From: Barnesiella sp. WM24
Lineage (GTDB): Bacteria; Bacteroidota; Bacteroidia; Bacteroidales; Muribaculaceae
Reading direction: 5' to 3'
Length of the DNA stretch: 64,000 bases
NCBI RefSeq assembly: GCF_004570975.1
Contig: NZ_SPPC01000001.1
Location: 124,001 to 188,000, forward strand
Both the position numbers and the translations under genes were made by a program. Positions 18,646-33,752 of the stretch are shown here, piece after piece (position 1 is the first letter of the stretch; every line of letters starts with the position of its first letter). The notes under the pieces were generated by a model. It had not been told where the DNA came from, ran no database searches, and saw nothing but the letters and a program-made list of their open reading frames with translations.

Positions 18646-18974
18646 TATTTCTCAAATTGAGATTCGATATAAGCAAACAACTCAGGATTGTTACACATCG
18701 GATGTTGAAGACTTTTACCTCCTTTGAAGCCATGTAATTTCAAAACTGATTCATCAAGTTTCTCTCCTGTATATTCCTCTATCGCCTTTAATCTCCAAGT
18801 CATGTGCATTGGCGGAGTTTCAATCCAATAATTGCCGTCAGCACGCAGTTCCTCAGCTACAACTTCTGTTTTATAAATAATTTTACGCTCCTTAGAGCTG
18901 AAGACTATATGTTTCTCAACATATTTCTTTGTTAGATTAAAATTTCGTATTACATTTGCAGTTGCAGACCGCAT
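18645..18974 (-). CDS. Small protein of unknown function upstream of the acetyltransferase
   Basis: The 109-residue frame is supported by its 1-base overlap with the acetyltransferase gene and by a well-folded-looking C-terminal half (MTWRLKAIEEYTGEKL ... HGFKGGKSLQHPM). The start is uncertain. The ATG at 18974 places the first ~17 codons across a strong plus-strand promoter for the RNA gene to the right, so the real start may lie inside the frame. I do not recognise the family. Confidence 0.5.
   Translation of the reverse strand: MRSATANVIRNFNLTKKYVEKHIVFSSKERKIIYKTEVVAEELRADGNYWIETPPMHMTWRLKAIEEYTGEKLDESVLKLHGFKGGKSLQHPMCNNPELFAYIESQFEK
18928..18958 (+). promoter_or_regulatory. Strong promoter facing the 6S-like RNA
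   Basis: TTTG at 18928-18931 and TACATTTG at 18951-18958 are 19 bases apart, a near-ideal Bacteroidota promoter. Transcription would start near 18965 and run through a GC-rich leader that can form GCATC/GATGC and CCCC/GGGG pairs, then into the RNA at 19056. Confidence 0.65.
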
Positions 18975-19055
18975 CGCAGGAGCCCCGGTCTGGGGTTTAG
19001 AGAGGCGGGATGCAGAGACATAATATAAAGCGTTTACTCGACGCTTGATTCTTGA

Positions 19056-19249
19056 CTATCGGGAATTCTCGCAAAATTCACATTGGAGTCAGGGATGAAG
19101 CAACGGTAGATGCCCGTGGATATGTATTATATTGTATTCAGCAGTGTACTCCGTGAGGAGCTATCGCTGAATACACTTGACACATATTCAAGCGTGGGCT
19201 TCTGCGTTGCCGTCCAACTCCAATAGGCAATGCGAGAAGCCTCCGATAG
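19056..19249 (+). ncRNA. ssrS: 6S-like RNA
   Basis: The 194 bases form one long, interrupted hairpin. Nested helices are CTATCGG/CCGATAG (19056-19062 with 19243-19249), TTCTCGC/GCGAGAA (19066-19072 with 19232-19238), ATTGGAGT/ACTCCAAT (19082-19089 with 19217-19224), GCAACG/CGTTGC (19100-19105 with 19205-19210) and GCCC/GGGC. The tip is a hairpin TATTCAGC/GCTGAATA at 19135-19173. Length, rod shape and bulged arms are those of 6S RNA, which mimics an open promoter and binds RNA polymerase. A strong promoter lies upstream. The exact ends are not known. Between it and 19341 I see only a T-run near 19282. Confidence 0.68.
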
Positions 19250-19340
19250 TGGGACGAGCAACAAGTACAGACAACTCACGCTTTTTTCGTACCCGCTCGA
19301 ATCAGGAGATGTCTATAGAGCACAAAACAATAAACCAGTC

Positions 19341-20852
19341 GTGGCTCGCAGGTCATCACATACTTCTTCATCTCGCCGTTCTCGCAATGGCAAAAAGAAT
19401 AGTTCAACTTCAAGATTTTTAATCATTGGAGGCTCAATCTGTGTAATAGCAATCATTGGTCTCTTGGTCTGGTTCCTCACAAGAACTCCTTCATATACAT
19501 TTCAACGCTCCCAGCTTGACAAGTACGTCGAGATGACTCAGAACGTGCATTTGCTGAATGATGGCGCATCGGTGTATGTTGATATGTCAGACGGCATGAA
19601 TTACGCATACTCTACCCCTGGAAGCAAGGAGATGCTTCAAGCAATTATAAATAAACTTGCAGCAAACCAAGCTATCAAGTTCTATGGATTAGCTGATGAG
19701 AAAATAACTCCATTGGATTATTCTCATACGCAACTTTATAATTATATGCTTAATCGTAACAGCTATGATAAACAGAAAGCTCCGATTGAAGCCACATTGC
19801 AAAAAATAATATCCGAGAACCAACCGGCACTCCTTATGACCGATTTTGAAGAATATAAGGGGCAGGTTATAGAACAAGCCGCTTACGCAAAAAAATATTT
19901 CATTACATGGCTTGCTAATGGTAATAACATAACCTTTTACAAATGGGACTTTGTGGAAAAAGGGAAAGCCAAGCATATGTTCTTGGCTGTATTTGATGAT
20001 AATGCCAATCGGCTAAATTCATTAGTTACAAATGCAGTTATTATGACGGCTCCTAATACCGAGAGATACGTTCTCGGGAGCCGCAATTTTGCTTATCCTA
20101 CCAGTACGCAATATATATCCTTAAAACAAGGGGGTAACTACCATAATAACGATGGTGTCGATGTTGTAACAGCTGTAATGGAAAATGGAGGATCTAATGA
20201 CTACATAAGTTATGCCAAACCTTATGCCACTGAAAATGGAGCTCCCGGTCAGTTCGCACCCTTAGACATATCTCTTGGCGCATACGCAGAATACTATCCA
20301 CTTGGTGTAAATTGGACTGATGCCATTGCTAATGCCAAACGTATGCAGGAAGCCGGAATTCCAGATGACATCAAATATGACCATCTGTTAAGTGACTTGT
20401 ATATTGATTTCGGAGCTCAAAACGGTTTCAATATTGAAAATGTAGAAGTCCGCGTTTTTGATATGTGTGAAACCATGATGACAATTTCAGCGAAAGGAGA
20501 CTCTATAAAAATAGAAGAAATAGAACGAATTGATAAGCCCGAAGTTAATATGTTCCTTACAGCATCAATGCATGATGGTAAAGGTTTGCCTATTGGCTGG
20601 AAAGAAATAACTGTTGATTTTGACAATCTTTTTAATGGCACATTTATCGGGGGCATCAATCCCACAAATCTATTTAGAGCCAACATTGTCATCTCAAAAG
20701 CCACTCCAAATATAGCTGAAGTAAACAACTTCTTTGGCTGGCCCGGGAATCCATCGTTAGCCAATTCTATTAAAGAAACATTGACCGCAGGTTCATCAAA
20801 TCCTCAAGGTCGTATTCTTTATACATATTATATAAAAACCATATCTGAATAA
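19341..20852 (+). CDS. Membrane-anchored protein with a VWA-like domain (Ter-type cluster)
   Basis: A positively charged, serine-rich N-terminus leads to one membrane helix (FLIIGGSICVIAIIGLLVWFL) near residues 25-46. The large domain after it contains VYVDMSDGMNYAYS near residue 80, resembling a MIDAS-type DxSxxM site of a von Willebrand A fold, and later LLMTDFEEYKG. The frame is open back to an ATG at 19230, but that lies in the 3' arm of the RNA, so I prefer the GTG at 19341; the start is uncertain. It is the first of nine co-directional genes. VWA proteins recur in TerD-linked stress clusters, which fits a scaffold role at the membrane. Confidence 0.68.
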   Translation: MARRSSHTSSSRRSRNGKKNSSTSRFLIIGGSICVIAIIGLLVWFLTRTPSYTFQRSQLDKYVEMTQNVHLLNDGASVYVDMSDGMNYAYSTPGSKEMLQAIINKLAANQAIKFYGLADEKITPLDYSHTQLYNYMLNRNSYDKQKAPIEATLQKIISENQPALLMTDFEEYKGQVIEQAAYAKKYFITWLANGNNITFYKWDFVEKGKAKHMFLAVFDDNANRLNSLVTNAVIMTAPNTERYVLGSRNFAYPTSTQYISLKQGGNYHNNDGVDVVTAVMENGGSNDYISYAKPYATENGAPGQFAPLDISLGAYAEYYPLGVNWTDAIANAKRMQEAGIPDDIKYDHLLSDLYIDFGAQNGFNIENVEVRVFDMCETMMTISAKGDSIKIEEIERIDKPEVNMFLTASMHDGKGLPIGWKEITVDFDNLFNGTFIGGINPTNLFRANIVISKATPNIAEVNNFFGWPGNPSLANSIKETLTAGSSNPQGRILYTYYIKTISE

Positions 20853-20868
20853 ATAAAACACTTACCAT

Positions 20869-21210
20869 ATGGAACAAGTATCAATCACATCTGCCTATAT
20901 GTGGGCAATCGTAATCATGGTGTCATTTTTTCTGCTCGCCGTGATAATCTCAAACCTCATTCTGTTTAAACCAAACAATCCAGGAACCACAACTCGCAGA
21001 ATTTGTTTTTGGGTACTGTGTGTTGCAACTGGTGTCGTTGGATTTATAATCAACTTCGCCATTGGCGAAGGCATTACAGTTCCGGTCATACAAAGCAATT
21101 ACTTCATGCACTCAGGAATAGCTGCCGGTGTTTGTGTTGTTGTTTACATTCTCATCGGTTTTGTTGTCAGCAAACTTTTCCCCAACTCTAAAGTTGGCAC
21201 GTGGTTCTAA
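20869..21210 (+). CDS. Small three-helix membrane protein
   Basis: The 113 residues contain three hydrophobic segments, near 10-34, 45-66 and 83-107, with short loops and no catalytic motif. I do not recognise the family. It lies 16 bases after the VWA-like gene and 17 bases before the tubulin-like gene, so it is part of the same operon and may be the membrane dock for the complex. Confidence 0.7.
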   Translation: MEQVSITSAYMWAIVIMVSFFLLAVIISNLILFKPNNPGTTTRRICFWVLCVATGVVGFIINFAIGEGITVPVIQSNYFMHSGIAAGVCVVVYILIGFVVSKLFPNSKVGTWF

Positions 21211-21227
21211 CGCACAAAGAGAAATAA

Positions 21228-22898
21228 ATGAACGATAAAGTATTCCTAATATCCATCGGCGGTACCGGAATGAGGTGCCTTGAATCTTTCGTGCATTTAT
21301 GCGCGGCCGGACTATTTGATAACCATACCATTGAGATTCTTACTCTTGATACCGACCAAAATAATGGTAATAAGGATCGAGTCGAGAGTCTGATAGGGCT
21401 CTACAACAAAGTTAAAACAAACGACGCATCGAATCAGGGTGGAGAACAACGCAGTAATACGTTCTTCTCTGCCAAGTTAAACTTATATAGATTTTTTACT
21501 GACTATTCTTCACCGAATAGGCAAACCCTACATGCTTTGGCATCAACTAAAAATCTTACCGACGAACAGCGACAAGACAACCAAGACCTTTCAGACCTCC
21601 TGTTTGAACGAGATTCAGTTCAGCAATTCAAACTTGATCATGGATACAGAGCACAAACTCATCTTGGCTCAATGCTCATGTATCATGGTATAATTGAAGC
21701 TGCAATAAACGCCAAAAAAGGCGGAGATGCTGTAAAGACACAAGAGAAAGAACTTGCCAGATATCTTGAACTTCTCAATAAACACGCTGCAACCGCACGA
21801 GTATTTGTTTTCGGAAGTGTATTTGGAGGAACTGGCGCTTCATCTATACCAGTAATACCTATCGCAATAAGTGAAGCCCTTAAAATCCTTACAGGCGGTA
21901 ACAATGAGTTAAACCTGAAAAAAGTTCTTTTCGGATCTACTCTTTTAACCGACTACTTCACATTCAAAACGCCTACAACTCAGCAACTGACTATAGATAA
22001 AATCATTGCTGACGCCAATAATTTTGCTCTAAACTCTCAAGCAGCTTTAAGTTTCTATAATGATGATACAACCGTAAAGAAGACTTATAAGCGTATGTAC
22101 CACATTGGCTGGCCGAGCAGTTTGAAAATAAACTATTCAGATGGTAAATCCGGGAATGTGGTTACAGGAGGGCATGAACAGCGAAACGATTGTCATGTTG
22201 CAGAGTTGATGTGTGCAGTTGCTGCATATGACTTCTTTAACGAAGATCGTGCAAAGCTTGAAAAAATAGGCGAAGCCGAGTACGATTTTAGAACAGTTGC
22301 AGTCGATGACAATGGCAATATGCAATTGTCTGGAGCAAGTTTTGTGGGGGCTGAACGCGGTGAAGTATTCGAGAATAAACTCGGAGCCTTACTATCCTTG
22401 GCTCACATTATATTGTCAAAATTTGAAGGTGCGCACGAAGGCACCTGTGGAACCGCTCAGTTGCTTAATTATCTCGACTCGGCAAAATTCACTAATTTCA
22501 ACGAACTTTCTGATGCACAATGCGCCGAGATAGATGAGTATCTCAAGGAATTTGGATACAAATTCGTTAAGAGCAGCGTCGTATTCGGGTGGATATACCA
22601 AGTATTCAAATCAGTAGGTGCCGGGAAATTTATTTTTGCTCCTGAAGCATTTATTACAGACATCAACGGTCTACATAACATTGACCCCGGAACCATCTTC
22701 GCAGATGAAGCTCATCACTGGGACAAATCAGGTGTAGCTGTGCTAAATTCTTCATCAGACAGGCGTTTCAATACACTTATAAGCCTACTCAAGAGTGAAG
22801 ATACAATCCCCGATGAGGCACAAGCAACAACTCTTAAAGAGGAGTTTCTCGCACAAATGTATAATGCGGTTACTATTGCTCAACATTTTAACGAATAA
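21228..22898 (+). CDS. Tubulin-like GTPase-fold protein
   Basis: The N-terminus KVFLISIGGTGMRCLES is a Rossmann-type glycine-rich loop, and FVFGSVFGGTGASSIPVI near residues 192-210 is the tubulin/FtsZ signature (GGTG[ST]). I therefore place it in the Tubulin_2 group of divergent bacterial tubulin-like proteins, which occur next to SrfB, VWA and Ter genes. At 556 residues it is longer than FtsZ, with a C-terminal domain of unknown role. It may bind GTP and polymerise or act as a switch. It lies 2 bases before the SrfB-like gene. Confidence 0.75.
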   Translation: MNDKVFLISIGGTGMRCLESFVHLCAAGLFDNHTIEILTLDTDQNNGNKDRVESLIGLYNKVKTNDASNQGGEQRSNTFFSAKLNLYRFFTDYSSPNRQTLHALASTKNLTDEQRQDNQDLSDLLFERDSVQQFKLDHGYRAQTHLGSMLMYHGIIEAAINAKKGGDAVKTQEKELARYLELLNKHAATARVFVFGSVFGGTGASSIPVIPIAISEALKILTGGNNELNLKKVLFGSTLLTDYFTFKTPTTQQLTIDKIIADANNFALNSQAALSFYNDDTTVKKTYKRMYHIGWPSSLKINYSDGKSGNVVTGGHEQRNDCHVAELMCAVAAYDFFNEDRAKLEKIGEAEYDFRTVAVDDNGNMQLSGASFVGAERGEVFENKLGALLSLAHIILSKFEGAHEGTCGTAQLLNYLDSAKFTNFNELSDAQCAEIDEYLKEFGYKFVKSSVVFGWIYQVFKSVGAGKFIFAPEAFITDINGLHNIDPGTIFADEAHHWDKSGVAVLNSSSDRRFNTLISLLKSEDTIPDEAQATTLKEEFLAQMYNAVTIAQHFNE

Positions 22899-22900
22899 CT

Positions 22901-25900
22901 ATGGCAGAAAAATCGCTTACAATAGATGTGAACACATCAGCCATTCCTTCTGGTGATCTCAATAAATGGAAGGAGTTGGGCAATACCTCTGTGTTCATCA
23001 AAAATATAATCACACCACAATTAAGCAAACATACAAATGTCGGTCAACTCGTGTCCGGCATCCCGACTGCTTTCGCTCGCGTTGACTTGTTCAAAACAGC
23101 GCTTGACCATGTTGCGACAAGTGGAGGTGATACTACCACGAATAATCTTGTTGGCTATTATAGTCAATTAGTTGACGAATGGAAAGGTCTTATTGCTTGT
23201 ATGGCACTCGATTATGCACATATCAGCGTAAGAAAAATCGCACTCTCATACAGCGATGGCAAAGATGTCGCAAAAACAAATAATGTTTACGAGCCTAAAG
23301 GTGCATTTGGAAATATGCTTCTTCGCCGTAGAAATCGTTGGTGCGACCAAAATCTTACTGACAATCAGACAGCGACTCCGTTTATTAACGTAATAAAATA
23401 TAGGAACACGGTTGTCGGTGCCACTGCTCCTGAATCGTTATTGTTCACATCCACAGGCTACAAATGTGATGCATCAGATGAACGCCCATGGATTGATGTC
23501 TTAACGGGTAAATTCATTGACCCTTTAAAATCATCAATGAAACCCATGCAAGTCGCGACCTTACATGCCTATGTTAGTCATATCCTGCAAGGATTAGGCG
23601 AAGCAGAGGAATATTATAAGTCGCTTCCTGCCGGGGAAGGTGTTAATTATATCTCAATACGCACTTTACTCAACTCTTGGAAACAAGAAATTGAAGAACG
23701 TGCTGCAAGAGATGGATTTGAACTTTCTATTGGCAGTACTCCTCCTGTGAGTGCAGCTTTTGGTGGACCTTTTGAGAAACTATTCTGTCATAAGGATATT
23801 CTCAATGGCGTTGAAGGTGTCATTTCGGAAACAGAAATGAACGGAGGTGTAGAATTCGATCCCAAAAATCTCTTGCTCGAAGATAATGCTCATATCGCCA
23901 AACTTGACTTAAATATTAGTGCGACAGAATTTAAGAATCTTCCAATTCTTGTTCTGACAGCCGACGTCAAGGGGATGCATGACAAAGCATATTTTGCACT
24001 TCCATTAAGTGCTCAAGGCTTAAACGTTTTTGGAAAAAATGTTGCCACCTTGGTTGGAATGTCTGGCTCATCGAGTGCAATTGCATCAACCCTTAAAGCG
24101 ACATATGACCCGTCTGTGCGCACAGATAACCTTGAAGTAATCCTTACTTTGGTTACTGACTCTGGCATACGTAGACAGTTCAAGAAAGTATATACTTCCG
24201 ATGGAGAAATCAAAAATAAGGATATTTTAATTTGGCCTAATTTCGTTTCTCCACAATGGAATGCCTACTTTATGTATAACGAACTGCCTCACAACGGCAC
24301 CAGTACGTCATATCGTGCTTTTCCATTCGTCGGTGATATGCAAGGCGACTATTTCCGAATTGTCGTTGATAGAGAGCAAGCTCCTGTTCTCCTAAGTCGC
24401 GACGGAAGAATAGTTGCGCCAGACAGGGTTGTCAAATCGGAGCTATTGGTTCTTTCTGATGAAGCAGTTGCAGACAACCCTTACAAATACGAGATATATC
24501 GCTCAAACAAGCCGTTCAAAGGGGTAAGACTTCTTTCTCCTACCGGCAACGAAGGTGGCTATCTTCTCATAAACTATAGTTCTGCTCAAGGCGCGAACTT
24601 ACCTCATGATTGGATGCGCCCCGGTGCTCACTCATCGTTGAATCCTGTCCGTTTGGGAATTGACTTTGGAAGTACCAATACATCAATCGCATATTCGAGC
24701 GACAGCACTCAGGAACAAGGATTTTCGTTTGGGAATCAGCGTGTTTCACTAATGGGGAATGAACTTCCCGGGAAGCCGTTATTCCCTCGTGAGAATCAAG
24801 TTTTCTTTTTTCAAGGTGCAGGTCCGAGCGTTATGTCAAACGCTATCAAGAGCGTGTTGACTATTCATGATAATCGTCGCTTGCCTGCACTTAAAACTGG
24901 CGAAACACTCAAAATGAGGAACGAGCGTGAAGTCGTAGGCGGTTTCCCAAGCTTTGCTGATAATCTTCCGTTCTCCAATTCCGAAAAGAATAAAATCACT
25001 TTGTTCTATCCTAATGGGGTTGGAGAAGTTACCCAAATCCATAATATGAAATGGGAGGACACCGATGATGATAAAGCTCATAAGAGTGCATTCTTGCGGA
25101 CTCTTATGCTTCAAGTTTATGCTACGCTGTTTGCCCAGGGTTTAGTACCTAATAGCATAAAATGGTCTTATCCATCTGCGATGGCGGGGCAACTTCTGTA
25201 TTCATATCAGAGTATTTGGGAGACGCTAAAATCGATTTCACCGGTTTTGAAAGAAAACGGCGAAAGATACGAGTTAAATGTTAGCCGCTATACTGATACC
25301 CGTTCGTTAGGAACCGATATTGGTACCGGGGTGTTTGGTACAGTGGGGCAAACATCAACCGGTTCCGAAAGTGGTTTTGGTGGCGGTTTCGGAGGCGGCT
25401 TCGGCAGTATAGATTCTTCCTTCGGGGGCGGTTTTGGAAGTAAGGGTTCCTCGGACTTCGGAGGCAGTTTCGGCGGAGATTTTGGCAGTGACAACTCTTT
25501 CGATGATAATGTTGGATTTGGTGCACTGGAAAACAAAGCTCCTGCCGAAGAGAACTCGTCTGAGGATTTTATGCCCGATAACCCGGACAAAGAGGTGTCG
25601 TATGATCCGGAGCCTCTATACACGATGACGAATGCAAATTCAAATCCGAGCCTATCAGAAGCGGAAGCAGTTGCCAATTTCATTTCGGTGAAATATGGCA
25701 CTGAAACCAACGTCTTAAATCTTTGCTTTGATGTCGGTGGTAGTACCACCGATATATCGGCTTTATTCTACCTTAAGAATGGAGTCACTATGATAAAGCA
25801 AAATTCATTGCGTTTTGCTGCTCAACGTGTATCACAATCTGTTGCAAAATTTCCTCAATTCAAGAAGGTTTTAAGCTCCATTTGTGCCGAATACAAAATC

Positions 25901-26815
25901 CAAATGGTTGGACTTAATTTCGGTAATGACACATACAATGAGCATACAGCGCCATACTTCTTCGATCAAATCGTTAATCGTCTTAACGATAATCAACTGG
26001 AACATCTATATCGGCGCATTGCAGCTGATTGTCCTCAGCTAATGTGCGTTAACATGTATGTAACCGGTCTTTTGATGTTCTATGCCGGGCAAGTCGCACA
26101 CAAACTTATTGATGATCTGAATAAGACTCCTGAGACCGAATGGCCTGCTCGTCGCAAACCTAATGTCCGTGTTACGTTTGCAGGTAAAGGCTCCCGACTT
26201 TTCCAATGGCTTAATACCATTAATTCTGCAGCAGCTAAGCAATATTATGGACAGATGTTCGTAATGGGATATGGTAAAAACCATCTAATGGAAACCCTCG
26301 CTGGATGGCAACATATTGAACTGCCTCAGCTTCATGATACTAATATCAAATATGAAGTATCGAAAGGCTTAGCCAAGGGAGATACCATTCTTCAGCGTCC
26401 ACGTACTCAGCAGCCTTCCGAAATTATCGGAGAGTCAGGATTTGAGTTGACCGGTAATGACAATATACCTCGGCCAATAGAGTTTACCAACTCCATTACT
26501 CCTGCGATGCTTGGCCAAATTGGTGTACGTCTTCGTGCCGATAACACTAAATCTCAAGCCGATAAATTCACTGAATTTTGTAGCTTCTTCTATCAAGCCG
26601 CTCGCCAACTCTTTAATTGGTCGGTTAATCCAGCCGAGCTTGAGGTCGCCTGTCGTGATATGAACATTTCGGGTTATGTACAGAATATGCCGGAATTCCG
26701 TTCGGCAAGACGAGAAGCACAGGAGGGCGGTAAACCTTTCAGCTTCGTTGCTCCTATCATTATCCTTGAGGGTATGAAATTCTATGAAAACACGTTGTTG
26801 AGACTATTAAGATGA
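22901..26815 (+). CDS. Very large SrfB-like actin/Hsp70-fold ATPase with a Gly-Phe-rich insert
   Basis: The 1304-residue protein has an unknown N-terminal ~560 residues followed by an ASKHA (actin/Hsp70) ATPase core split by a long insert. Phosphate-1 is RLGIDFGSTNTSIAYS near 587, phosphate-2 is LCFDVGGSTTDISALF near 944, and VTFAGKGSRLF near 1095 fits the adenosine site. Residues ~825-870 are a low-complexity run of FGGGFG-type repeats with serine and aspartate, then an acidic linker. The general plan resembles SrfB virulence-factor proteins. It overlaps the next gene by 4 bases. A chaperone- or filament-like partner of the tubulin-like protein is inferred. Confidence 0.75.
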   Translation: MAEKSLTIDVNTSAIPSGDLNKWKELGNTSVFIKNIITPQLSKHTNVGQLVSGIPTAFARVDLFKTALDHVATSGGDTTTNNLVGYYSQLVDEWKGLIACMALDYAHISVRKIALSYSDGKDVAKTNNVYEPKGAFGNMLLRRRNRWCDQNLTDNQTATPFINVIKYRNTVVGATAPESLLFTSTGYKCDASDERPWIDVLTGKFIDPLKSSMKPMQVATLHAYVSHILQGLGEAEEYYKSLPAGEGVNYISIRTLLNSWKQEIEERAARDGFELSIGSTPPVSAAFGGPFEKLFCHKDILNGVEGVISETEMNGGVEFDPKNLLLEDNAHIAKLDLNISATEFKNLPILVLTADVKGMHDKAYFALPLSAQGLNVFGKNVATLVGMSGSSSAIASTLKATYDPSVRTDNLEVILTLVTDSGIRRQFKKVYTSDGEIKNKDILIWPNFVSPQWNAYFMYNELPHNGTSTSYRAFPFVGDMQGDYFRIVVDREQAPVLLSRDGRIVAPDRVVKSELLVLSDEAVADNPYKYEIYRSNKPFKGVRLLSPTGNEGGYLLINYSSAQGANLPHDWMRPGAHSSLNPVRLGIDFGSTNTSIAYSSDSTQEQGFSFGNQRVSLMGNELPGKPLFPRENQVFFFQGAGPSVMSNAIKSVLTIHDNRRLPALKTGETLKMRNEREVVGGFPSFADNLPFSNSEKNKITLFYPNGVGEVTQIHNMKWEDTDDDKAHKSAFLRTLMLQVYATLFAQGLVPNSIKWSYPSAMAGQLLYSYQSIWETLKSISPVLKENGERYELNVSRYTDTRSLGTDIGTGVFGTVGQTSTGSESGFGGGFGGGFGSIDSSFGGGFGSKGSSDFGGSFGGDFGSDNSFDDNVGFGALENKAPAEENSSEDFMPDNPDKEVSYDPEPLYTMTNANSNPSLSEAEAVANFISVKYGTETNVLNLCFDVGGSTTDISALFYLKNGVTMIKQNSLRFAAQRVSQSVAKFPQFKKVLSSICAEYKIQMVGLNFGNDTYNEHTAPYFFDQIVNRLNDNQLEHLYRRIAADCPQLMCVNMYVTGLLMFYAGQVAHKLIDDLNKTPETEWPARRKPNVRVTFAGKGSRLFQWLNTINSAAAKQYYGQMFVMGYGKNHLMETLAGWQHIELPQLHDTNIKYEVSKGLAKGDTILQRPRTQQPSEIIGESGFELTGNDNIPRPIEFTNSITPAMLGQIGVRLRADNTKSQADKFTEFCSFFYQAARQLFNWSVNPAELEVACRDMNISGYVQNMPEFRSARREAQEGGKPFSFVAPIIILEGMKFYENTLLRLLR

Positions 26816-28803
26816 ACGGAGACAGCTATAAAATAATCATATCCATATCTCACCATCGCATTTCCTTTGAATACTGGCAACGCGATGGTGAGAACAAACT
26901 TGTATCGCTCCCTAATGGAAATTGGCCCGCCCCATTGGCTTTCTATTGCTCCGATACAGGTATTGTAATTGGGGATGATGCTGTCCGTGCAGCCCATTCT
27001 GGAACCACTAACGCTTTCGATAATTACTTTGAACGATTAGTGGAGGATAGCACATATACTATTGGAGGTCAAACTCGTCCAATTAGGAATCTATTGCTAG
27101 ATGCATCGGAATCTATTTTTCGAGATTTTTTCCGTCATGTCTTGTTTAATAGATTTGGCTCTTTGAGCGACAATCGGGCTAATATGCCTCTGACAATTGT
27201 ATGTGAGTCAGACATAAAGCCTAATGAAAGAGCCTTACTTCATGGTTTATTCAAGGACAGCGGATATAATCGAGTCAGAGTCGTTGATTATGATTGTTAT
27301 ATAAATAGATATATTAATGAATCCTTATCTAACGAATATGTCTGCGACAAAGTCGTGGTCGCTTGGGCAGAAGGTGCTGATTTAACGTTCTCTATATTCG
27401 GTGTGAATAATGATTTCGCTCCCATTGTCAAAAGTTTTGAAAACTTAGGAATTGATCCGCGAAAGAAGTATGTTGAGAAGATGATATGGGAAAGGGTTAT
27501 AGGTCAGAATCCATGGCTCCAAAAGTCAGATGAAGAAGATGCAATAAGTAAAGCTGCATCCGACTTTTTAAGTTCATCGCTGCCATTGGTCAATGATACA
27601 ATCTTGCTTTCCGACGGGCAGCAATACCATTATAGCCTTAATAGGAACACAATAGACTATATCCAAAATTCTGACGTAGTATCTATAAAGGACACTTTGG
27701 AACAATTCCTTAAAGAGAATGGAATTATAAATCGTTCAAGGGTTCTTCTTCTGCTGCGTGGAATTGTTGCCGGTAATTCATATTTTGAACAAAATCTTAG
27801 CCCCGGATTTTCAAAAACTATTAGGACAGATAAAAAACTTCGAGATAACACGATGAACCTCATTATCTCTGAAGTAGTTCCTATGTTTGAACCTGAGACA
27901 ATTATTGTTGAATCTCCCGTTGATGTTAATCCTCCGCGGGAAAGCGACAATCAAATTAAAATAAAGGAAATTTCAAAGAAATGGAGACTGGTTAAGGCCG
28001 AGGCCAATGGAAAGCAGCGTGGTGGACAGCCCGACATGGCACTACAGATGCTTAAGGACTTTCTTTCTGAATGTCAAGCCATATCAGGAGTTGATAATGT
28101 AATCGCAGAAATTTCTACTGAAATTGCGAAATATAATATCACTCAAGCACCAGTTGTCAATCATAATTCAATTAAATCATTTGAACGGCAATGGCGAGAG
28201 ATTAAGGCTACAGCGAAAGGAAAAGTCAGGTCGGGAAATTTATCTGATGCTCGTTCCATTCTTCAAAGTTTTCTCAATTCTTTGGAAAAGGAACCAGGAA
28301 CAGACAGTCTTATTAGCTCCGTTCAAAACGAACTTTCATTGATTGCCGCTGATGAACCTAAGCGATCTAAATCCAGGCATAAAGATGGTGACATTCACCC
28401 TAACGGCAAATGGGTTTGGGTTGCTTCTGCGGCTAACGGAAATGGTGACTGGCGCGTTATTGATGGAAGAATTCACAATCAGACCAAGCAATATAAAGAA
28501 TCCGCCAGAGAAAAGAATAACGATGGAGATTCTTTAATAGCACAAGGTAAACTCAAGGAAGCTCGCGATTGGTATAGGAGCCAAAACAACAACGTTATGG
28601 CTCGTATACTTTCTGACATAATACGTTCTCAAAAAGGCGTGGAATTAAGGAAAGCCGCTATCGAAGAATATAGAAAATCAAAAAATCGCGAACAAATTTC
28701 CCGTATCATCAAAGAGATTGAAGAATATATAGATTTATGCGAAAAAGCTGGTCTCAATTCTTCTGAATATAAAAAACTGCTTGCAGACTACCGAAAAATA
28801 TAA
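26812..28803 (+). CDS. Second actin/Hsp70-like protein with C-terminal helical repeats
   Basis: The first ~370 residues follow the Hsp70-like plan (YKIIISISHHRISFEYW; PLTIVCESDIKPNERALL; VVVAWAEGADLTFSIFG) but the phosphate loops are degenerate, so ATP hydrolysis is doubtful. The C-terminal part holds two ~60-residue repeats beginning KWRLVKAEANGKQRGGQPD and QWREIKATAKGKVRSGNLSD, which look like TPR-type helical hairpins, and then a final coiled region. It overlaps the SrfB-like gene by 4 bases and ends 19 bases before the first TerD gene. It probably acts as an adaptor between the large ATPase and the TerD proteins. Confidence 0.65.
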   Translation: MNGDSYKIIISISHHRISFEYWQRDGENKLVSLPNGNWPAPLAFYCSDTGIVIGDDAVRAAHSGTTNAFDNYFERLVEDSTYTIGGQTRPIRNLLLDASESIFRDFFRHVLFNRFGSLSDNRANMPLTIVCESDIKPNERALLHGLFKDSGYNRVRVVDYDCYINRYINESLSNEYVCDKVVVAWAEGADLTFSIFGVNNDFAPIVKSFENLGIDPRKKYVEKMIWERVIGQNPWLQKSDEEDAISKAASDFLSSSLPLVNDTILLSDGQQYHYSLNRNTIDYIQNSDVVSIKDTLEQFLKENGIINRSRVLLLLRGIVAGNSYFEQNLSPGFSKTIRTDKKLRDNTMNLIISEVVPMFEPETIIVESPVDVNPPRESDNQIKIKEISKKWRLVKAEANGKQRGGQPDMALQMLKDFLSECQAISGVDNVIAEISTEIAKYNITQAPVVNHNSIKSFERQWREIKATAKGKVRSGNLSDARSILQSFLNSLEKEPGTDSLISSVQNELSLIAADEPKRSKSRHKDGDIHPNGKWVWVASAANGNGDWRVIDGRIHNQTKQYKESAREKNNDGDSLIAQGKLKEARDWYRSQNNNVMARILSDIIRSQKGVELRKAAIEEYRKSKNREQISRIIKEIEEYIDLCEKAGLNSSEYKKLLADYRKI

Positions 28804-28822
28804 TCATATAATATCAACAACA

Positions 28823-29455
28823 ATGGCAAAAAAATTCGACCTTTCAAAAGGTGAAAAGTTCTCACTCGGCAAAGGTGATGAGCTTTCAGCAATTCAGGTT
28901 GACCTGAATTGGAAATCAGGTGCAGACCTTGATGCATCCGCGTTCCTCCTTAACGATGATGGTGTAATAACCGAAGATGCTGACTTTGTTTATTACAAGT
29001 CCAACAACCGTTCCGAAGCTTACGACCGCACAAAATTCGGCAGCAAGAAAAACTGGCGTGACAACACAGTCCCTGTCAGCTTCGATGGCTCAGTAGTGGG
29101 TTCCGCTGATGACCTTGGTGATGGAGAGGATGATGGCGGCGAGGAAGCCGGCGAAACCATGCACGTTGACCTTTCCAAGGTTCGTCCCGAAATCACAGAA
29201 ATAGTCTTCTGCGTAACCATTTACGATGAGGAAGGTAAAACAACATTCAAGAATGTTCGAGATCCTCAAATCGTTATCACAAACGAAGAAACTGGCGAAG
29301 AACTGTGTTCCTACAATCTCAAAGAGCACTTCTCATCTGAGACAGCTGTAGTTGCCGGTGCTCTCGTTCTTAACGAAGATGGAGACTGGGAGTTTGAGGC
29401 TATAGGCAAAGGCTACGATGGTGGGCTTCAAACCCTTGTTGACATGTACCAGTAA
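28823..29455 (+). CDS. TerD-family calcium-binding stress protein (copy 1)
   Basis: The start MAKKFDLSKGEKFSLGKGD followed by VDLNWKSGADLDASAFLL and DFVYYKSNNR is the TerD pattern; the aspartates of the DLDAS and acidic loop regions bind calcium in this family. I chose the ATG at 28823 because an upstream frame overlaps the previous gene without adding conserved sequence. A glycine- and acid-rich loop (GDGEDDGGEEAGE) near residues 94-107 enlarges the usual acidic site. The 210-residue length is normal. It is cytosolic, with no signal peptide. The next gene is a diverged copy 8 bases downstream. Confidence 0.88.
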   Translation: MAKKFDLSKGEKFSLGKGDELSAIQVDLNWKSGADLDASAFLLNDDGVITEDADFVYYKSNNRSEAYDRTKFGSKKNWRDNTVPVSFDGSVVGSADDLGDGEDDGGEEAGETMHVDLSKVRPEITEIVFCVTIYDEEGKTTFKNVRDPQIVITNEETGEELCSYNLKEHFSSETAVVAGALVLNEDGDWEFEAIGKGYDGGLQTLVDMYQ

Positions 29456-29463
29456 AGTAAGCT

Positions 29464-30087
29464 ATGGGTAAATTCAACCTCAAAAAACTCGATGGTGGCG
29501 ATAGATTTGCCCTATCGAAAAGTCTTGGCCTCGACAACATCCGTGTCGAGCTTACATGGCAAAAAGGGGATTTAGACACGCAAGCTTGGCTTCTGAACCT
29601 TGACGGAATCATTGTTAATGACGAGGGTTTCGTATTCTACAACTCTGTAAATCGTACTGAAAAGTTCGATCGCGCCAAATTTGGTAATAAGAAAAACTAT
29701 CTTGATTCTACTCGTCCCATGAGTGCCGACGGAGCAGTCCTCGGAGCAAAAGACGAGATGGAAGGAGGTATTGAAACTATCAATATCTGCCTTGGCAAGA
29801 TCGCTCCTGAAGTGCAAGAAGTTGCAATTCCCGCAACCGTATACGTCCCCAATGATGATAATGTCGAGACATTTGGCGAGGTTGAAAACGCCAAGATTAC
29901 TGTTATCGATGAAGAATCCGGCGAGGCACTATGTTTCTACGAACTCAGCAAAGATTATAAATCCGAAGATGCACTCGTTGCCGCTCGCTTTATAATCAAT
30001 GATGAGGGCGAATGGGAGTTTGAAGCAGTCGGCAATGGTTATAACGGTGGCTTGCAGACTCTTGTTGACATGTATACAGAAGAATAA
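29464..30087 (+). CDS. TerD-family stress protein (copy 2)
   Basis: The protein has 207 residues in the same order as copy 1: FNLKKLDGGDRFALSK, VELTWQKGDLDTQAWLLN, GFVFYNSVNRTEKFDRAKFG and a final YNGGLQTLVDMY that copy 1 also carries. Copy 2 lacks the long acidic loop and has a normal one, so the two should differ in calcium affinity. The shared end and spacing point to an old tandem duplication. It lies 12 bases before the CW_7 protein gene. Confidence 0.88.
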   Translation: MGKFNLKKLDGGDRFALSKSLGLDNIRVELTWQKGDLDTQAWLLNLDGIIVNDEGFVFYNSVNRTEKFDRAKFGNKKNYLDSTRPMSADGAVLGAKDEMEGGIETINICLGKIAPEVQEVAIPATVYVPNDDNVETFGEVENAKITVIDEESGEALCFYELSKDYKSEDALVAARFIINDEGEWEFEAVGNGYNGGLQTLVDMYTEE

Positions 30088-30099
30088 AATTCATTCATT

Positions 30100-30753
30100 A
30101 TGGCAAAACAAGACAAAAGTAAGTTTCAATTAAATAAAGGAACTGACCACGGATTCGACATTTCAAAGGGTGGGAAACGTAAATTCGACCTCTCTAAGGA
30201 TGACGATGAACCGGTTGTTGCTCCTGTAGCACAACCACAACCAACAGATTCGGTTAATTCAGTTAACCCGACCCCCGAACCAGAAGAGAAAAAGAATGGC
30301 AAGTGGCTTTGGGTAATACTGGCTATAATTGTTATCATTCTTCTGATTTGGTGGTTGCTTCCCGGTAAATCAACAGAATCCTCACCTATAGTTGAGAAAG
30401 AAACTATTGAGGAGGTAACAACACCCGCTGAAAATACTGAGGAAGTGTCCAATGAAGCAGAAATTCTTTCCGGAGGAGATGCTGTAGAAGAAAACGCCAA
30501 TAATGACGAAAGTTCTAATCCATCAGAGGCTGTTGTAAATACTCAAGAGACCACCCCTGCCGCTCCCCAAACCACTAATAATGTTGCCACTAACAATGCT
30601 CCATCTGTCGTTTCCAATGACGTTGAGGCAGAAGCTATAAAAGTTATTCGTGGCGAGTATGGCATTGGACAAGAGCGTAAGGATAAGCTTGGTAAGCATT
30701 ACGAAGCTATTCAACGCCGTGTTAATGAACTGAAACGAGAAGGCGCATTTTGA
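30100..30753 (+). CDS. Single-pass membrane protein linking TerD-like N-terminus to a CW_7 domain
   Basis: The N-terminal ~35 residues repeat short motifs seen at the start of the TerD proteins (FQLNKG, FDISKG, FDLSKD). After a proline-rich spacer comes one membrane helix (WLWVILAIIVIILLIWWLL) near residues 69-88, then a long Thr/Glu/Asn/Pro-rich stalk. The C-terminal ~38 residues (AIKVIRGEYGIGQERKDKLG, then YEAIQRRVN) match the CW_7 domain of Cpl-7-type lysozymes, which binds peptidoglycan. The N-terminus would face the cytosol and the CW_7 domain the wall. It is followed by a terminator, so the calcium ATPase has a separate or read-through transcript. Confidence 0.75.
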   Translation: MAKQDKSKFQLNKGTDHGFDISKGGKRKFDLSKDDDEPVVAPVAQPQPTDSVNSVNPTPEPEEKKNGKWLWVILAIIVIILLIWWLLPGKSTESSPIVEKETIEEVTTPAENTEEVSNEAEILSGGDAVEENANNDESSNPSEAVVNTQETTPAAPQTTNNVATNNAPSVVSNDVEAEAIKVIRGEYGIGQERKDKLGKHYEAIQRRVNELKREGAF

Positions 30754-30774
30754 CGCAGCCTGACGTATCCTTTG

Positions 30775-30815
30775 GGGTGAAGAGGTTGAGTTTACTTGGC
30801 TTCTTCACCCTATTT
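30775..30815 (+). terminator. Terminator after the CW_7 protein gene
   Basis: GGGTGAAGA at 30775-30783 pairs with TCTTCACCC at 30802-30810, followed by TATTTCTT. It separates the Ter-type operon from the calcium ATPase gene. Confidence 0.65.
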
Positions 30816-30838
30816 CTTAAACAATACTTCAATATTAT

Positions 30839-33691
30839 ATGCCAAATAATCACACTTATACTGGCTTGACCGACGCGGAAGTGTTGGAGAGCCGCAGAAA
30901 GAATGGCGTCAATATTCTGACGCCTCCAGAACAAGACCCTTGGTGGAAAGAGTTTTTAGATAAATTCTCCGATCCGCTGATTATTATCCTGTTGGTCGCA
31001 GGTGTGTTGTCCATCGGAATCTCATTTTATGAGTTTTTCGGACTTGGTCAGGACTGGAAAGTGTTCTTTGAACCAATCGGCATTTTTGTCGCTATCGGTC
31101 TTGCAACAACACTTGCCTTCATCTTTGAGCAGAAAGCCAACAAAGCCTTTAAGATTCTCAATCAGGTAAATGACGATGAGCTGGTTGAGGTGATGAGAAA
31201 CGGCTCTATGACTACTATCCCCAGAAAAGATGTGGTTGTAGGTGACATAGTAATTCTTAATACCGGTGACGAGATACCCGCCGACGGAGAATTGCTTGAT
31301 GCTGTTACGCTGAGTGTTGATGAATCAACTCTTACAGGAGAGCCTCTCTGTGCCAAGACCACCGACAAAGCACACTTTGACAAGGATGCAACCTATCCAT
31401 CAAACCATGTAATGCGTGGTACAAAGGTCATGGAAGGTCATGGCATAATGCGCGTTCTCAAAGTGGGCGATGCTACCGAAATGGGCAAGGTATTTGAGGA
31501 AGCTCAGATTGATGACTCAGTCAAGACTCCTCTCAATGAGCAACTTGACGGTCTTGCTGACTGGATTACCAATGTAAGTTACATATTTGCCGGACTCATA
31601 ATCGTCGGTCAGTTGATCCACTTCCTCGGTTGGGGTGCATGGCAGGCATGGACGTTAGTAATACCCGTGGCTCTGTTTTTCTGGCTTGTTATCAAGAAAT
31701 TTGAAGACTGGTCAAAAGCCAAGTGTATTCTCACAATCGTAGGATTCTTCATCGTCTTCTTTGCTATGGTGATTGGAGCGTTCTCAATGCTCAATTCCGG
31801 TGCCGACAGTGCCATGTGGTCGCTCCTCCTTGCCCATACGCTCAAGACGCTGATGGTTGCCGTTACCCTTATCGTGGTTGCAGTGCCCGAAGGTCTGCCG
31901 ATGGCAGTAACACTCTCTTTGGCATACTCGATGAGCCGTATGCTCAAGACCAACAACCTTGTCCGCAAGATGCACGCCTGTGAGACAATGGGTGCCACAA
32001 CTGTGATTTGTACCGATAAGACCGGTACTCTGACTCAGAACCAGATGCAGGTTTACAAGACCAATTTCTTCGGTGAACCCTCTGACAAGGTTCTCTACGA
32101 AGGAATAGCAGTAAACTCGACCGCACAGCTCGACCTCTCAGGTGACAAACATCAAGTGCTTGGTAATCCTACCGAAGGCGCTCTGTTGCTTTGGCTCAAA
32201 GAGCGAGGCGCCAATTATCTTGACCTGCGCAATGGTGCAACCCGACTTGAAGAACTGCCGTTCACTACTGAACGTAAATATATGGCGACTGTCGTAAAAT
32301 CTGCGACTGGAAAGAACATCCTCTATATCAAAGGGGCTCCAGAAATAGTATTCAGTATGTGCAAGAACACCCATGGGGTTACAAAGGCTGAAATTGACGC
32401 ACAGCTGCTTGAATATCAGAATCAGGCAATGCGCACTCTCGGCTTTGCATATCAGGAACTTGACGATAAGGACGCAACAATCGCTGACGGCAAAGTGGTT
32501 GCCGATAACCTGACGTTCCTTGGGATTGTTGCAATCTCTGACCCTGTCCGTATTGACGTGCCCGACGCGGTCTTTGAGGTTATTGATGCCGGAATCAAAG
32601 TTAAGATTGTAACCGGTGACACTCCCGGAACTGCAAAAGAAATCGGTCGTCAAATTGGTCTTTGGAACGATGTGACAGATACTGACCGCAATATCATCAC
32701 CGGTACGGAATTTGCCGAACTTTCCGATAAGCAACTAAAGGAGCGTGTGGGCGAACTTAAAATCATTGCCCGCGCCCGACCTATGGACAAGAAGCGTCTC
32801 GTAGAGGCTCTGCAGGCCAACAACGAAGTTGTTGCCGTAACAGGAGACGGAACAAATGACGCTCCTGCGCTCAAAACCGCCCATGTCGGTCTTTCGATGG
32901 GCGACGGCACATCTGTTGCCAAAGAAGCATCCGACATCACCATCATCGACAACTCATTCTCTTCAATCGGTCGTGCCGTGATGTGGGGTCGCTCCCTCTA
33001 CAAGAATATCCAGCGTTTCCTCCTGTTCCAGCTCACGGTCAATGTCGCAGCCTGTTTCCTCGTGCTTTTCGGATCATTCATGGGAACAGAATCGCCCCTT
33101 ACCGTTACGCAGATGCTCTGGGTAAACCTCATCATGGATACCTTCGGAGCAATGGCCCTTGCATCACTTCCTCCCTCTCAGAGAGTGATGGATGAAAAGC
33201 CCCGTAAGCGTGAAGCCTCCATTCTCTCAAAACCGATGCTATGGGAGCTATGCAGTGTAGGCTTTATCTTCTTTGCCATCACCCTTGGATTCTATTGGCT
33301 TTTCAACCATGCAGAGGTCACCTCTATACCGCAAATGTTCCATACCACAATAGGTTCTGCAGCGGAAATGACACCATACGAAGCAACGCTCTTGTTCTCG
33401 ATATTCGTATGGACACACTTCTGGTATATGTTCAATGCCCGTAGCTTCGAGACTGGCGAAAGCGTGTTCAAGCTGAAAATGAGCCAAGGCTTCTGGACTA
33501 TTGTTGGCATTATAGTTATCGGTCAGCTGTTTATTACCGAGATTGCATACGAGTTCTTCAACGTAGAGCCGATGCTTCATACCCTTGACTGGAGTTTCAA
33601 TCCCTCGGGAGCACTCGACCTTGCAATCATCGTAGTAGTATCATCGCTTGTCCTTTGGGTAAGAGAAATATACAGACTGTTCAAGAAATAA
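30839..33691 (+). CDS. PMCA-type calcium-transporting P-type ATPase
   Basis: All P2-type ATPase motifs are present: the actuator STLTGEP near residue 164, the ion-binding VAVPEGLP at 347-354, the phosphorylated aspartate D393 in CTDKTGTLT, the nucleotide-binding KGAPE, and GDGTNDAPAL in the hinge. Ten membrane segments can be placed in the 950 residues. The pattern fits plasma-membrane-type calcium pumps, so it should export Ca2+ from the cytosol using ATP. There is no extra C-terminal regulatory domain. Its place directly after two calcium-binding TerD genes supports a joint calcium role, although a terminator and an 85-base gap lie between. Two further terminator-like hairpins follow. Confidence 0.9.
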   Translation: MPNNHTYTGLTDAEVLESRRKNGVNILTPPEQDPWWKEFLDKFSDPLIIILLVAGVLSIGISFYEFFGLGQDWKVFFEPIGIFVAIGLATTLAFIFEQKANKAFKILNQVNDDELVEVMRNGSMTTIPRKDVVVGDIVILNTGDEIPADGELLDAVTLSVDESTLTGEPLCAKTTDKAHFDKDATYPSNHVMRGTKVMEGHGIMRVLKVGDATEMGKVFEEAQIDDSVKTPLNEQLDGLADWITNVSYIFAGLIIVGQLIHFLGWGAWQAWTLVIPVALFFWLVIKKFEDWSKAKCILTIVGFFIVFFAMVIGAFSMLNSGADSAMWSLLLAHTLKTLMVAVTLIVVAVPEGLPMAVTLSLAYSMSRMLKTNNLVRKMHACETMGATTVICTDKTGTLTQNQMQVYKTNFFGEPSDKVLYEGIAVNSTAQLDLSGDKHQVLGNPTEGALLLWLKERGANYLDLRNGATRLEELPFTTERKYMATVVKSATGKNILYIKGAPEIVFSMCKNTHGVTKAEIDAQLLEYQNQAMRTLGFAYQELDDKDATIADGKVVADNLTFLGIVAISDPVRIDVPDAVFEVIDAGIKVKIVTGDTPGTAKEIGRQIGLWNDVTDTDRNIITGTEFAELSDKQLKERVGELKIIARARPMDKKRLVEALQANNEVVAVTGDGTNDAPALKTAHVGLSMGDGTSVAKEASDITIIDNSFSSIGRAVMWGRSLYKNIQRFLLFQLTVNVAACFLVLFGSFMGTESPLTVTQMLWVNLIMDTFGAMALASLPPSQRVMDEKPRKREASILSKPMLWELCSVGFIFFAITLGFYWLFNHAEVTSIPQMFHTTIGSAAEMTPYEATLLFSIFVWTHFWYMFNARSFETGESVFKLKMSQGFWTIVGIIVIGQLFITEIAYEFFNVEPMLHTLDWSFNPSGALDLAIIVVVSSLVLWVREIYRLFKK

Positions 33692-33704
33692 AATTTGAAA
33701 CCCC

Positions 33705-33737
33705 GATAGCGCATCGGGGCTATCCCGGTGCGCTATC
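33705..33737 (+). terminator. Terminator after the calcium ATPase gene
   Basis: GATAGCGCA at 33705-33713 pairs with TGCGCTATC at 33729-33737. An alternative smaller stem CCCCGAT/ATCGGGG overlaps the left arm, so two mutually exclusive folds are possible. Confidence 0.6.
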
Positions 33738-33752
33738 TTAACAAATACACTT

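What the first reader, a model, noticed from the sequence alone, without database searches (positions are those of the whole stretch)
19341..33691. Nine-gene TerD / tubulin-like / SrfB-like / CW_7 / calcium-pump cluster: a candidate envelope-stress machine
Seen: one run of co-directional genes with 2-19 base gaps or overlaps encodes two membrane proteins (one VWA-like), a tubulin-fold protein, two actin-fold proteins, two TerD calcium binders and a wall-binding membrane protein, followed by a PMCA-type Ca2+ pump. Established: TerD binds calcium, and TerD genes have been linked by comparative genomics to VWA, tubulin-like and SrfB-like genes, but their joint function is largely unknown. Inference: a calcium-gated cytoskeletal or chaperone complex docks at the membrane and wall and responds to envelope damage or phage entry. 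Putting a tubulin fold and two actin folds in one operon is rare.
Basis: partly seen in the sequence, partly recalled or inferred. Interest (0 to 1): 0.85.

Follow-up and report, generated by a model that had tools for sequence, protein, structure and literature searches.

The report
Mobile TerD, tubulin and Hsp70 operon
A gut bacterium carries a transferable gene cluster that probably builds a complex running from the cell wall through the membrane to calcium-binding TerD proteins, a tubulin relative and Hsp70-like proteins inside the cell, and the wall-linked membrane protein carries copies of the TerD proteins' own tail, which suggests how the parts dock.

Summary
The nine genes are real and where stated. 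Eight (A-H, 19341-30753) form one tight run; the Ca2+ pump (I) follows 85 bases later behind a terminator-like hairpin. All 8 loci from the collection scan keep A-H in order. The pump adjoins in 4 of 11 assessable lineages, one very distant. Corrections: D is not a SrfB member but has Hsp70/actin ATP-site motifs; E is predicted as an Hsp70-type ATPase fold with degenerate motifs plus helical repeats; VWA for A rests on motifs only. The operon is patchy, and in one mobilizable element it sits behind an integrase and relaxase. New: H carries copies of the TerD N-terminal tail (three FxLxK units here) before its membrane helix. By eye, tail type agrees between H and its own TerD in 13 of 13 loci, with either a CW_7 or an OmpA wall domain. 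TerD (or TerD-like) and H are both present or both absent in all assessable loci. AlphaFold leaves the TerD tail disordered. My reading: H recruits TerD to membrane and wall through these segments, forming a Ca2+-responsive TerD/Hsp70/tubulin assembly. Docking and function are inferred, untested. In passing: a structured RNA without Rfam match lies upstream.

The parts
18967..19287 (+). structured non-coding RNA element upstream of gene A (leader or separate RNA); dispersed family, optional here
   Evidence: 10 copies share a fold, 105 pairs, 25 with both-sided changes; by eye present before the operon in the window, L017, L018, L019, not in L020-L023
19341..20852 (+). gene A: membrane-anchored extracytoplasmic protein with MIDAS-like motif (VWA-like, unproven); upstream start at 19230 possible
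   Evidence: one hydrophobic segment; D81, S83, D168 invariant in 17 of 17; no VWA profile support
20869..21210 (+). gene B: small membrane protein, three predicted helices
21228..22898 (+). gene C: tubulin-like GTPase-type protein
   Evidence: 12 of 12 relatives match Tubulin_2 and Tubulin at E <= 0.1, below cut-offs; GGTG signature invariant
22901..26815 (+). gene D: 1304-residue protein with Hsp70/actin ATP-site motifs and an F/G-rich insert; not SrfB
26812..28803 (+). gene E: predicted pseudo-Hsp70 ATPase fold followed by helical repeats
28823..29455 (+). gene F: TerD with free N-terminal tail FDLSKGEKFSLGKG
   Evidence: Pfam; AlphaFold body confident, residues 1-18 mostly under pLDDT 50
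29464..30087 (+). gene G: second TerD, same type of tail, shortened acidic loop
30100..30753 (+). gene H: wall anchor; N-terminal tail with three FxLxK units, one membrane helix, CW_7 domain
30773..30812 (+). terminator-like hairpin between H and I
   Evidence: 18 pairs, best of the scan
30839..33691 (+). gene I: PMCA-type Ca2+ pump, optional neighbour
   Evidence: TIGR01517; beside the operon in 4 of 11 assessable lineages

Best explanation
Genes A-H encode one mobile, envelope-spanning assembly. H is a wall anchor: its C-terminal CW_7 (elsewhere OmpA) domain holds peptidoglycan, one helix crosses the inner membrane, and its N-terminal tail, presumably cytosolic, carries copies of the TerD N-terminal tail. 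TerD proteins F and G, predicted Ca2+ binders, are gathered at the membrane because these segments use the same docking interaction as TerD's own free tails (most simply, tails dock on TerD bodies). The gathered TerDs feed into a tubulin-like GTPase (C) and an Hsp70-type pair (D with intact ATP motifs, E a pseudo-Hsp70 with helical repeats), with A as extracytoplasmic sensor-like domain and B as membrane partner. A rise of cytosolic Ca2+ after envelope damage would switch TerD; the pump, where present, resets Ca2+. Shown by sequence: gene content and order, co-inheritance of TerD and H, tail copies and agreement of tail type, mobility. Inferred: docking, TerD as the tail's receptor, NTP-driven assembly, Ca2+ as trigger, envelope stress or phage as the occasion.
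For: Order A-H in 8 of 8 close relatives. Core A-E without TerD in L057 and L058 and, split over two contigs, L063/L064. TerD or TerD-like and H: both in 14 loci (13 lineages), neither in 11, one alone in none of the assessable ones. Two or more strict tail units before a TM helix: 12 of 112 TM ORFs in the loci held plus the window, all of them H genes (11 distinct; L097 repeats that of L067); 0 of 27 in 20 canonical ter loci. The H tail scores higher against its own best TerD N-terminus than against all 222 background N-termini in 10 of 11 loci; for L062 its own TerD-like ranks 1 of 76. Tail type agrees between H and TerD in 13 of 13 loci by eye, in all four combinations with CW_7 or OmpA. 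TerD tail predicted disordered. E Hsp70-like. Pump adjacent in four lineages, one at 43% identity.
Against: No contact was tested; complexes could not be predicted here. L056 is weak: 6 of 222 background N-termini score as well. Own TerD ranks first of 76 in only 3 of 11 loci, so tail type, not fine detail, agrees. In V-type loci the tails are short: composition shuffles reach the regex count in 256 and 387 of 2000 (L062, L119), L068 was not shuffled, and none of the three passes the strict filter. Loci are related; 13 of 13 may be about four independent events. V-type TerD-like proteins have no Pfam match; the link to TerD is hhalign 85% and one weak cross-hit (E 4e-4). G lacks most of the acidic loop. 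The pump is missing in 7 of 11 assessable lineages and lies behind a terminator-like hairpin. VWA for A is unproven. Which side of the membrane the tail faces was not tested.
Confidence: 0.42

Rival explanations
1. The tail is a tag read by a third protein. TerD and H both present the same short segment to one receptor in the cell, most likely the Hsp70-type D (or the E repeats), so they compete for or are bridged by that receptor rather than bind each other.
For: The tail is a free segment in TerD; units are a short hydrophobic core flanked by basic residues, which recalls Hsp70 substrate motifs (recalled, not tested); D and E are always in the same operon.
Against: Canonical TerD proteins carry the same tail in ter loci where no C or D gene was listed near them, so the receptor would have to exist there too; TerD itself is the simplest common receptor.
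Confidence: 0.24
2. A defence or conflict system: the assembly senses an invader at the envelope and kills or arrests the cell.
For: Patchy distribution, transfer between genera, carriage on a mobilizable element, kinship in plan to proposed conflict systems with tubulin, HSP70 and vWA (PMC7159879, section 29 read).
Against: No recognised effector or toxin domain in A-I; PADLOC weak hits only. Not exclusive of the main reading.
Confidence: 0.2
3. A cytoskeletal or positioning system: tubulin-like filaments anchored to the wall by H organise shape, division or element segregation; TerD is structural.
For: Tubulin-like C with nucleotide signature; wall anchor H; two related C-D pairs lie on cyanobacterial plasmids.
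Against: E and D look like Hsp70-type ATPases rather than filament-forming actins; no evidence of polymerisation.
Confidence: 0.11
4. The neighbours are a loose cargo with separate functions that travel together on a mobile element.
For: Mobility; the pump is optional.
Against: Order A-H conserved in 8 of 8 close loci, TerD and H never apart in assessable loci, matched tails in 13 loci.
Confidence: 0.03

Closest known systems
GAP1-N2 GTPase-centred systems with tubulin, HSP70 and membrane vWA genes (Kaur et al. 2020, eLife, PMC7159879; section 29 and passages read)
   Same: Tubulin-domain genes beside TM proteins with extracellular vWA; HSP70 genes, some with only the HSP70 domain; wall-binding domains on membrane components; predicted regulated assemblies
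   Different: Those are built on a TRAFAC GTPase and GAP1, and the paper describes the tubulin and the HSP70 neighbourhoods as non-overlapping themes, mostly of Firmicutes and Actinobacteria. Here no such GTPase or GAP1 was matched, tubulin and two Hsp70-type genes are together, and TerD plus a tail-bearing wall anchor are added
Canonical ter operons (TerD paralogues with TerY-type VWA genes)
   Same: Several TerD genes with the same hydrophobic-x-L-x-K N-terminal tail
   Different: No membrane protein with the tail in 20 ter loci (0 of 27 TM ORFs); C and D relatives were not searched for by profile in those loci
SrfABC (SrfB = PF07520)
   Same: A large protein with an actin-type D-x-G-G-x-T-T-D motif beside other conserved genes; true SrfB genes occur in 3 of 7 genomes searched
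   Different: D is outside PF07520 and the profile alignment, 11% probability, centres on the phosphate motif
Huge gut 'Jug' phages with TerD genes and a PMCA-type Ca2+ pump (PMC12363816; section 13 and passages read)
   Same: TerD genes and a Ca2+ P-type ATPase in one genome, in phages predicted to infect Bacteroides or Phocaeicola
   Different: There the TerD genes and the pump are in separate transcripts; the word tubulin does not occur in that text

Membership tests
TerD (PF02342) | profile score above the curated cut-off, genes F and G | tested here: met
   146.5 and 111 bits, cut-off 25.3
TerD (PF02342) | TerD fold (gene F) | tested here: met
   [not shown]
TerD (PF02342) | Ca2+ binding | not testable with these tools
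   F keeps the DLD stretch and the acidic loop; G has a shortened loop
Tubulin/FtsZ superfamily (gene C) | GGTG nucleotide signature | tested here: met
   FGGTGASS invariant in 12 of 12
Tubulin/FtsZ superfamily (gene C) | Pfam curated cut-off | tested here: not met
   Tubulin_2 20.2 bits, cut-off 27; Tubulin 19, cut-off 33; both families at E <= 0.1 in 12 of 12 members
SrfB (PF07520) (gene D) | profile match | tested here: not met
   no match in G000 at E <= 1; hhalign 11%
Hsp70/actin ATPase superfamily (gene D) | phosphate-1, phosphate-2 and adenosine-type motifs in order | tested here: met
   GIDFGS-N, DVGGST-D and GKG-R invariant in 14 of 14; the naming of the motifs is recalled
Hsp70/actin ATPase superfamily (gene D) | profile match or fold | tested here: inconclusive
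   no HSP70 Pfam match in 14 of 14; Ssz1 chain 4gni at E 0.087; fold not predicted
Hsp70 ATPase domain (gene E) | fold | tested here: met
   [not shown]
Hsp70 ATPase domain (gene E) | canonical nucleotide motifs | tested here: not met
   KIIISISHHRIS and VVVAWAEGADLTF stand where the phosphate loops are expected
VWA (gene A) | MIDAS residues | tested here: inconclusive
   D81, S83 and D168 invariant in 17 of 17; the further MIDAS position was not identified
VWA (gene A) | profile match | tested here: inconclusive
   no VWA family in the Pfam scan of 17 members; hhalign to 10 TerY-type proteins 0.2%; fold not predicted
CW_7 (PF08230) (gene H) | profile score above cut-off | tested here: met
   43.6 bits, cut-off 25
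PMCA-type Ca2+ ATPase (TIGR01517) (gene I) | equivalog cut-off | tested here: met
   598.8 bits, cut-off 507.05
GAP1-N2 GTPase-centred system | TRAFAC GTPase and GAP1 genes | tested here: not met
   no such match among genes A-I and the gene at 16647-18053 (Pfam)
Known anti-phage system | PADLOC-DB (2023) match | tested here: not met
   only weak partial hits, best E 0.0035

The most novel reading that the evidence does not exclude
The N-terminal TerD tail is a docking code. TerD-family proteins assemble through free FxLxK-type tails, and wall-anchored membrane proteins (H, with either CW_7 or OmpA) carry copies of the same tail to nucleate Ca2+-responsive TerD assemblies at the inner membrane, which drive an Hsp70-pair/tubulin machine. 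The tail type changes together with its TerD, independently of the wall domain.
Probability: 0.33. Interest if true: 0.82.

Novelty: new variant of a known kind. Interest (0 to 1): 0.6.

Why it matters
What TerD proteins do has long been unclear. The matched tails turn a list of co-occurring genes into one testable contact: does the tail of a wall-anchored membrane protein bind TerD, and does Ca2+ change it? If so, TerD would be a Ca2+-sensing adaptor between cell wall and a cytosolic Hsp70/tubulin assembly, and canonical ter operons could be probed through the same tail. It would also add a branch without the GTPase to the proposed tubulin/HSP70/vWA systems, carried between gut bacteria on a mobilizable element.

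Tried and rejected
SrfB identity of D: rejected by the PF07520 search and profile comparison. SrfA match of H (NF040486, E 1.6e-5, 24.5 bits against a cut-off of 150) covers the TM helix and linker; not taken as membership. E against D and E against the 472-residue protein of L024: no usable profile similarity. VWA by profile: no support. PDB sequence searches with profiles of A, C, D and E gave nothing usable. PADLOC, tRNA in the window, phages collection for C, Rfam for the upstream element: nothing. In plasmids C has 5 weak hits, all cyanobacterial; I read two, each with a D-like gene after the tubulin-like one. D in viral contigs: one locus, L119. An attempt to compare the exact ends of the transferred block with L053 failed (anchors not found), so no attachment sites or target repeats are claimed. 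Literature: TerD+tubulin+SrfB gave 0 papers; the listings showed no paper that I recognised as describing this operon. The library holds open-licence papers only, so absence in print is not shown.

Rows dropped or caveated: L016 and L017 (same contig as L053) are near-copies of the window block, and L021 and L054 are one contig; each counted once in lineages. L029, L059, L060, L061 and L064 are cut by contig ends and are left out of the TerD/H co-occurrence count; L023 and L119 are left out of the pump count. TerD 1 of L021 and B of L018 were hidden by longer overlapping ORFs and recovered. The strict tail filter misses the three V-type H genes (L062, L068, L119). Part of the output was cut; the count was redone whole.
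Full report
WHAT IS THERE. The window holds nine co-directional genes at 19341-33691 as described. Eight of them, A-H, follow each other with gaps of 16, 17, 2, -4, 19, 8 and 12 bases; gene I, the pump, starts 85 bases after H, behind an 18-pair terminator-like hairpin at 30773-30812. Pfam and NCBIfam confirm TerD for F and G, CW_7 for H and a PMCA-type pump for I. C is tubulin-like: each of 12 relatives matches Tubulin_2 and Tubulin at E <= 0.1, though the window's protein stays below the curated cut-offs, and the GGTG signature is invariant.

CONSERVATION. A scan of genome contigs with D gave 8 loci. All 8 keep A-B-C-D-E-F-G-H in order with differing flanks (one TerD and one B hidden by overlapping ORFs were recovered); two of the 8, L016 and L017, are near-copies of the window block. 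In whole genomes D is patchy: 6 of 197 other genomes sampled in the order, 12 of 197 in the family and 0 of 13 other genomes of the genus, 3 of 394 in the phylum, one of them weak. L057 and L058, and L063 with L064, hold A-E without TerD and H; more distant ones hold C-D with other neighbours, such as a PP2C phosphatase gene in L024. Two cyanobacterial plasmids hold a tubulin-like gene followed by a D-like gene. A six-frame profile scan finds TerD or TerD-like and H together in 14 loci (13 lineages), neither in 11 (L024-L028, L057, L058, L063, L065, L066, L069), and one alone only where a contig ends (L061).

MOBILITY. The block 18905-33738 is 93% identical to a locus in a genome of another genus, with abrupt ends. 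In L119, from viral contigs, the run A-H with two TerD-like genes lies directly behind an integrase gene, with relaxase and MobC-type genes before it, so the operon rides on a mobilizable element there.

THE TAIL. H starts with three repeats (FQLNKG, FDISKG, FDLSKD) before its single TM helix; F and G start with two of the same kind. The tandem is a usual start of TerD: proteins of 20 ter loci in the phylum begin with INLQKG-type units. Among 112 distinct ORFs with a first TM helix at residue 25-170 in all loci held plus the window, 12 have two or more strict units before it, and all 12 are H genes (11 distinct); none of the 27 such ORFs in the 20 ter loci does. In 10 of 11 loci the H tail scores higher against its own best TerD N-terminus than against each of 222 background N-termini; in L056, 6 of 222 do as well; its own TerD ranks first of 76 TerD N-termini in 3 of 11 loci. 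Shuffling the H tails reaches the observed unit number in at most 6 of 2000 shuffles in ten loci, but in 256 and 387 of 2000 in the V-type L062 and L119, whose tails are short. By eye, the tail type of H and TerD agrees in 13 of 13 loci: F-type in the window, L018-L023, L055 and L056; mixed F/I/L in L067; V/I-type with basic residues in L062, L119 and L068. The wall domain varies independently: CW_7 in F-type loci and in V-type L062 (by similarity to H) and L119, OmpA in L067 and in V-type L068. So the tail follows the TerD and not the wall domain. These loci are related; I count about four independent occasions. The V-type TerD-like proteins lack a Pfam match; without their tails they align to TerD with 85% probability over 82 columns, against 0.4% for a VWA control, and their profile finds the L056 TerD at E 4e-4.

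THE PUMP. I adjoins the operon in 4 of 11 assessable lineages: the window group, L019 (with an ion-channel gene between), L021 and the distant L067, where the pump is 43% identical. It was not found in L018, L020, L022, L055, L056, L062 (only 1.6 kb readable beyond H) or L068. So it is an optional partner, but its return in a distant lineage argues for a Ca2+ link. A 2025 preprint reports TerD genes and such a pump in huge gut phages predicted to infect Bacteroides (PMC12363816, section 13 and passages read).

HOW IT MOST LIKELY WORKS. Shown by sequence: content, order, co-inheritance of TerD and H, tail copies and agreement of tail type, mobility. Inferred: H holds wall and membrane and gathers TerD through tail-type docking; Ca2+ changes TerD; a tubulin-like GTPase and an Hsp70-type pair build or remodel the assembly; A reports from outside. 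The nearest published systems are the GAP1-N2 GTPase-centred ones with tubulin, HSP70 and membrane vWA genes (PMC7159879, section 29 and passages read); this operon shows no match to the GTPase and GAP1 that define them, so it may work like them but is not a member.

VERDICT. Observation confirmed with corrected calls for D and E and a caveat on A; interpretation partly supported; the matched tails are the new and testable part.

Noticed in passing
window 18967-19287 (+), upstream of gene A: A structured non-coding RNA element of about 320 bases belonging to a dispersed family: a 406-base query (18925-19330) finds matches in 92 of 119 family genomes, own included, and a 196-position covariance model in 15 of 149 order genomes, own included. 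Ten copies share a fold with 105 pairs, 25 with both-sided changes; 9 of 9 other copies read precede a co-oriented ORF; no Rfam match to the element. A TAnnTTTG-like box (promoter motif recalled) lies just before it.
   Followed up: partly
L119 1-17829 (IMGVR_UViG_2857903310_000004): A contig filed as viral holds integrase, relaxase and MobC-type genes and the A-H operon behind the integrase: it looks like a mobilizable element.
   Followed up: partly
[not shown]
   Followed up: no
window 35916-36845 (-): Two adjacent ORFs with DDE_3 and helix-turn-helix matches look like a split IS630-type transposase (family name recalled), about 2 kb beyond the right end of the transferred block.
   Followed up: no
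L024 204-701 and 8274-9053: A distant C-D locus has a membrane protein with a weak DUF2135 match (E 0.011) and a DLDLHL stretch, possibly an extracytoplasmic stand-in for TerD, and a PP2C phosphatase gene after D.
   Followed up: no
L016: A near-copy of the block sits in a MAG labelled Candidatus Saccharibacteria; a binning error seems likely.
   Followed up: no
window 25400-25600 (gene D): The Hsp70-like gene D of the close relatives carries an F/G-rich low-complexity insert of about 140 residues that distant relatives lack.
   Followed up: partly
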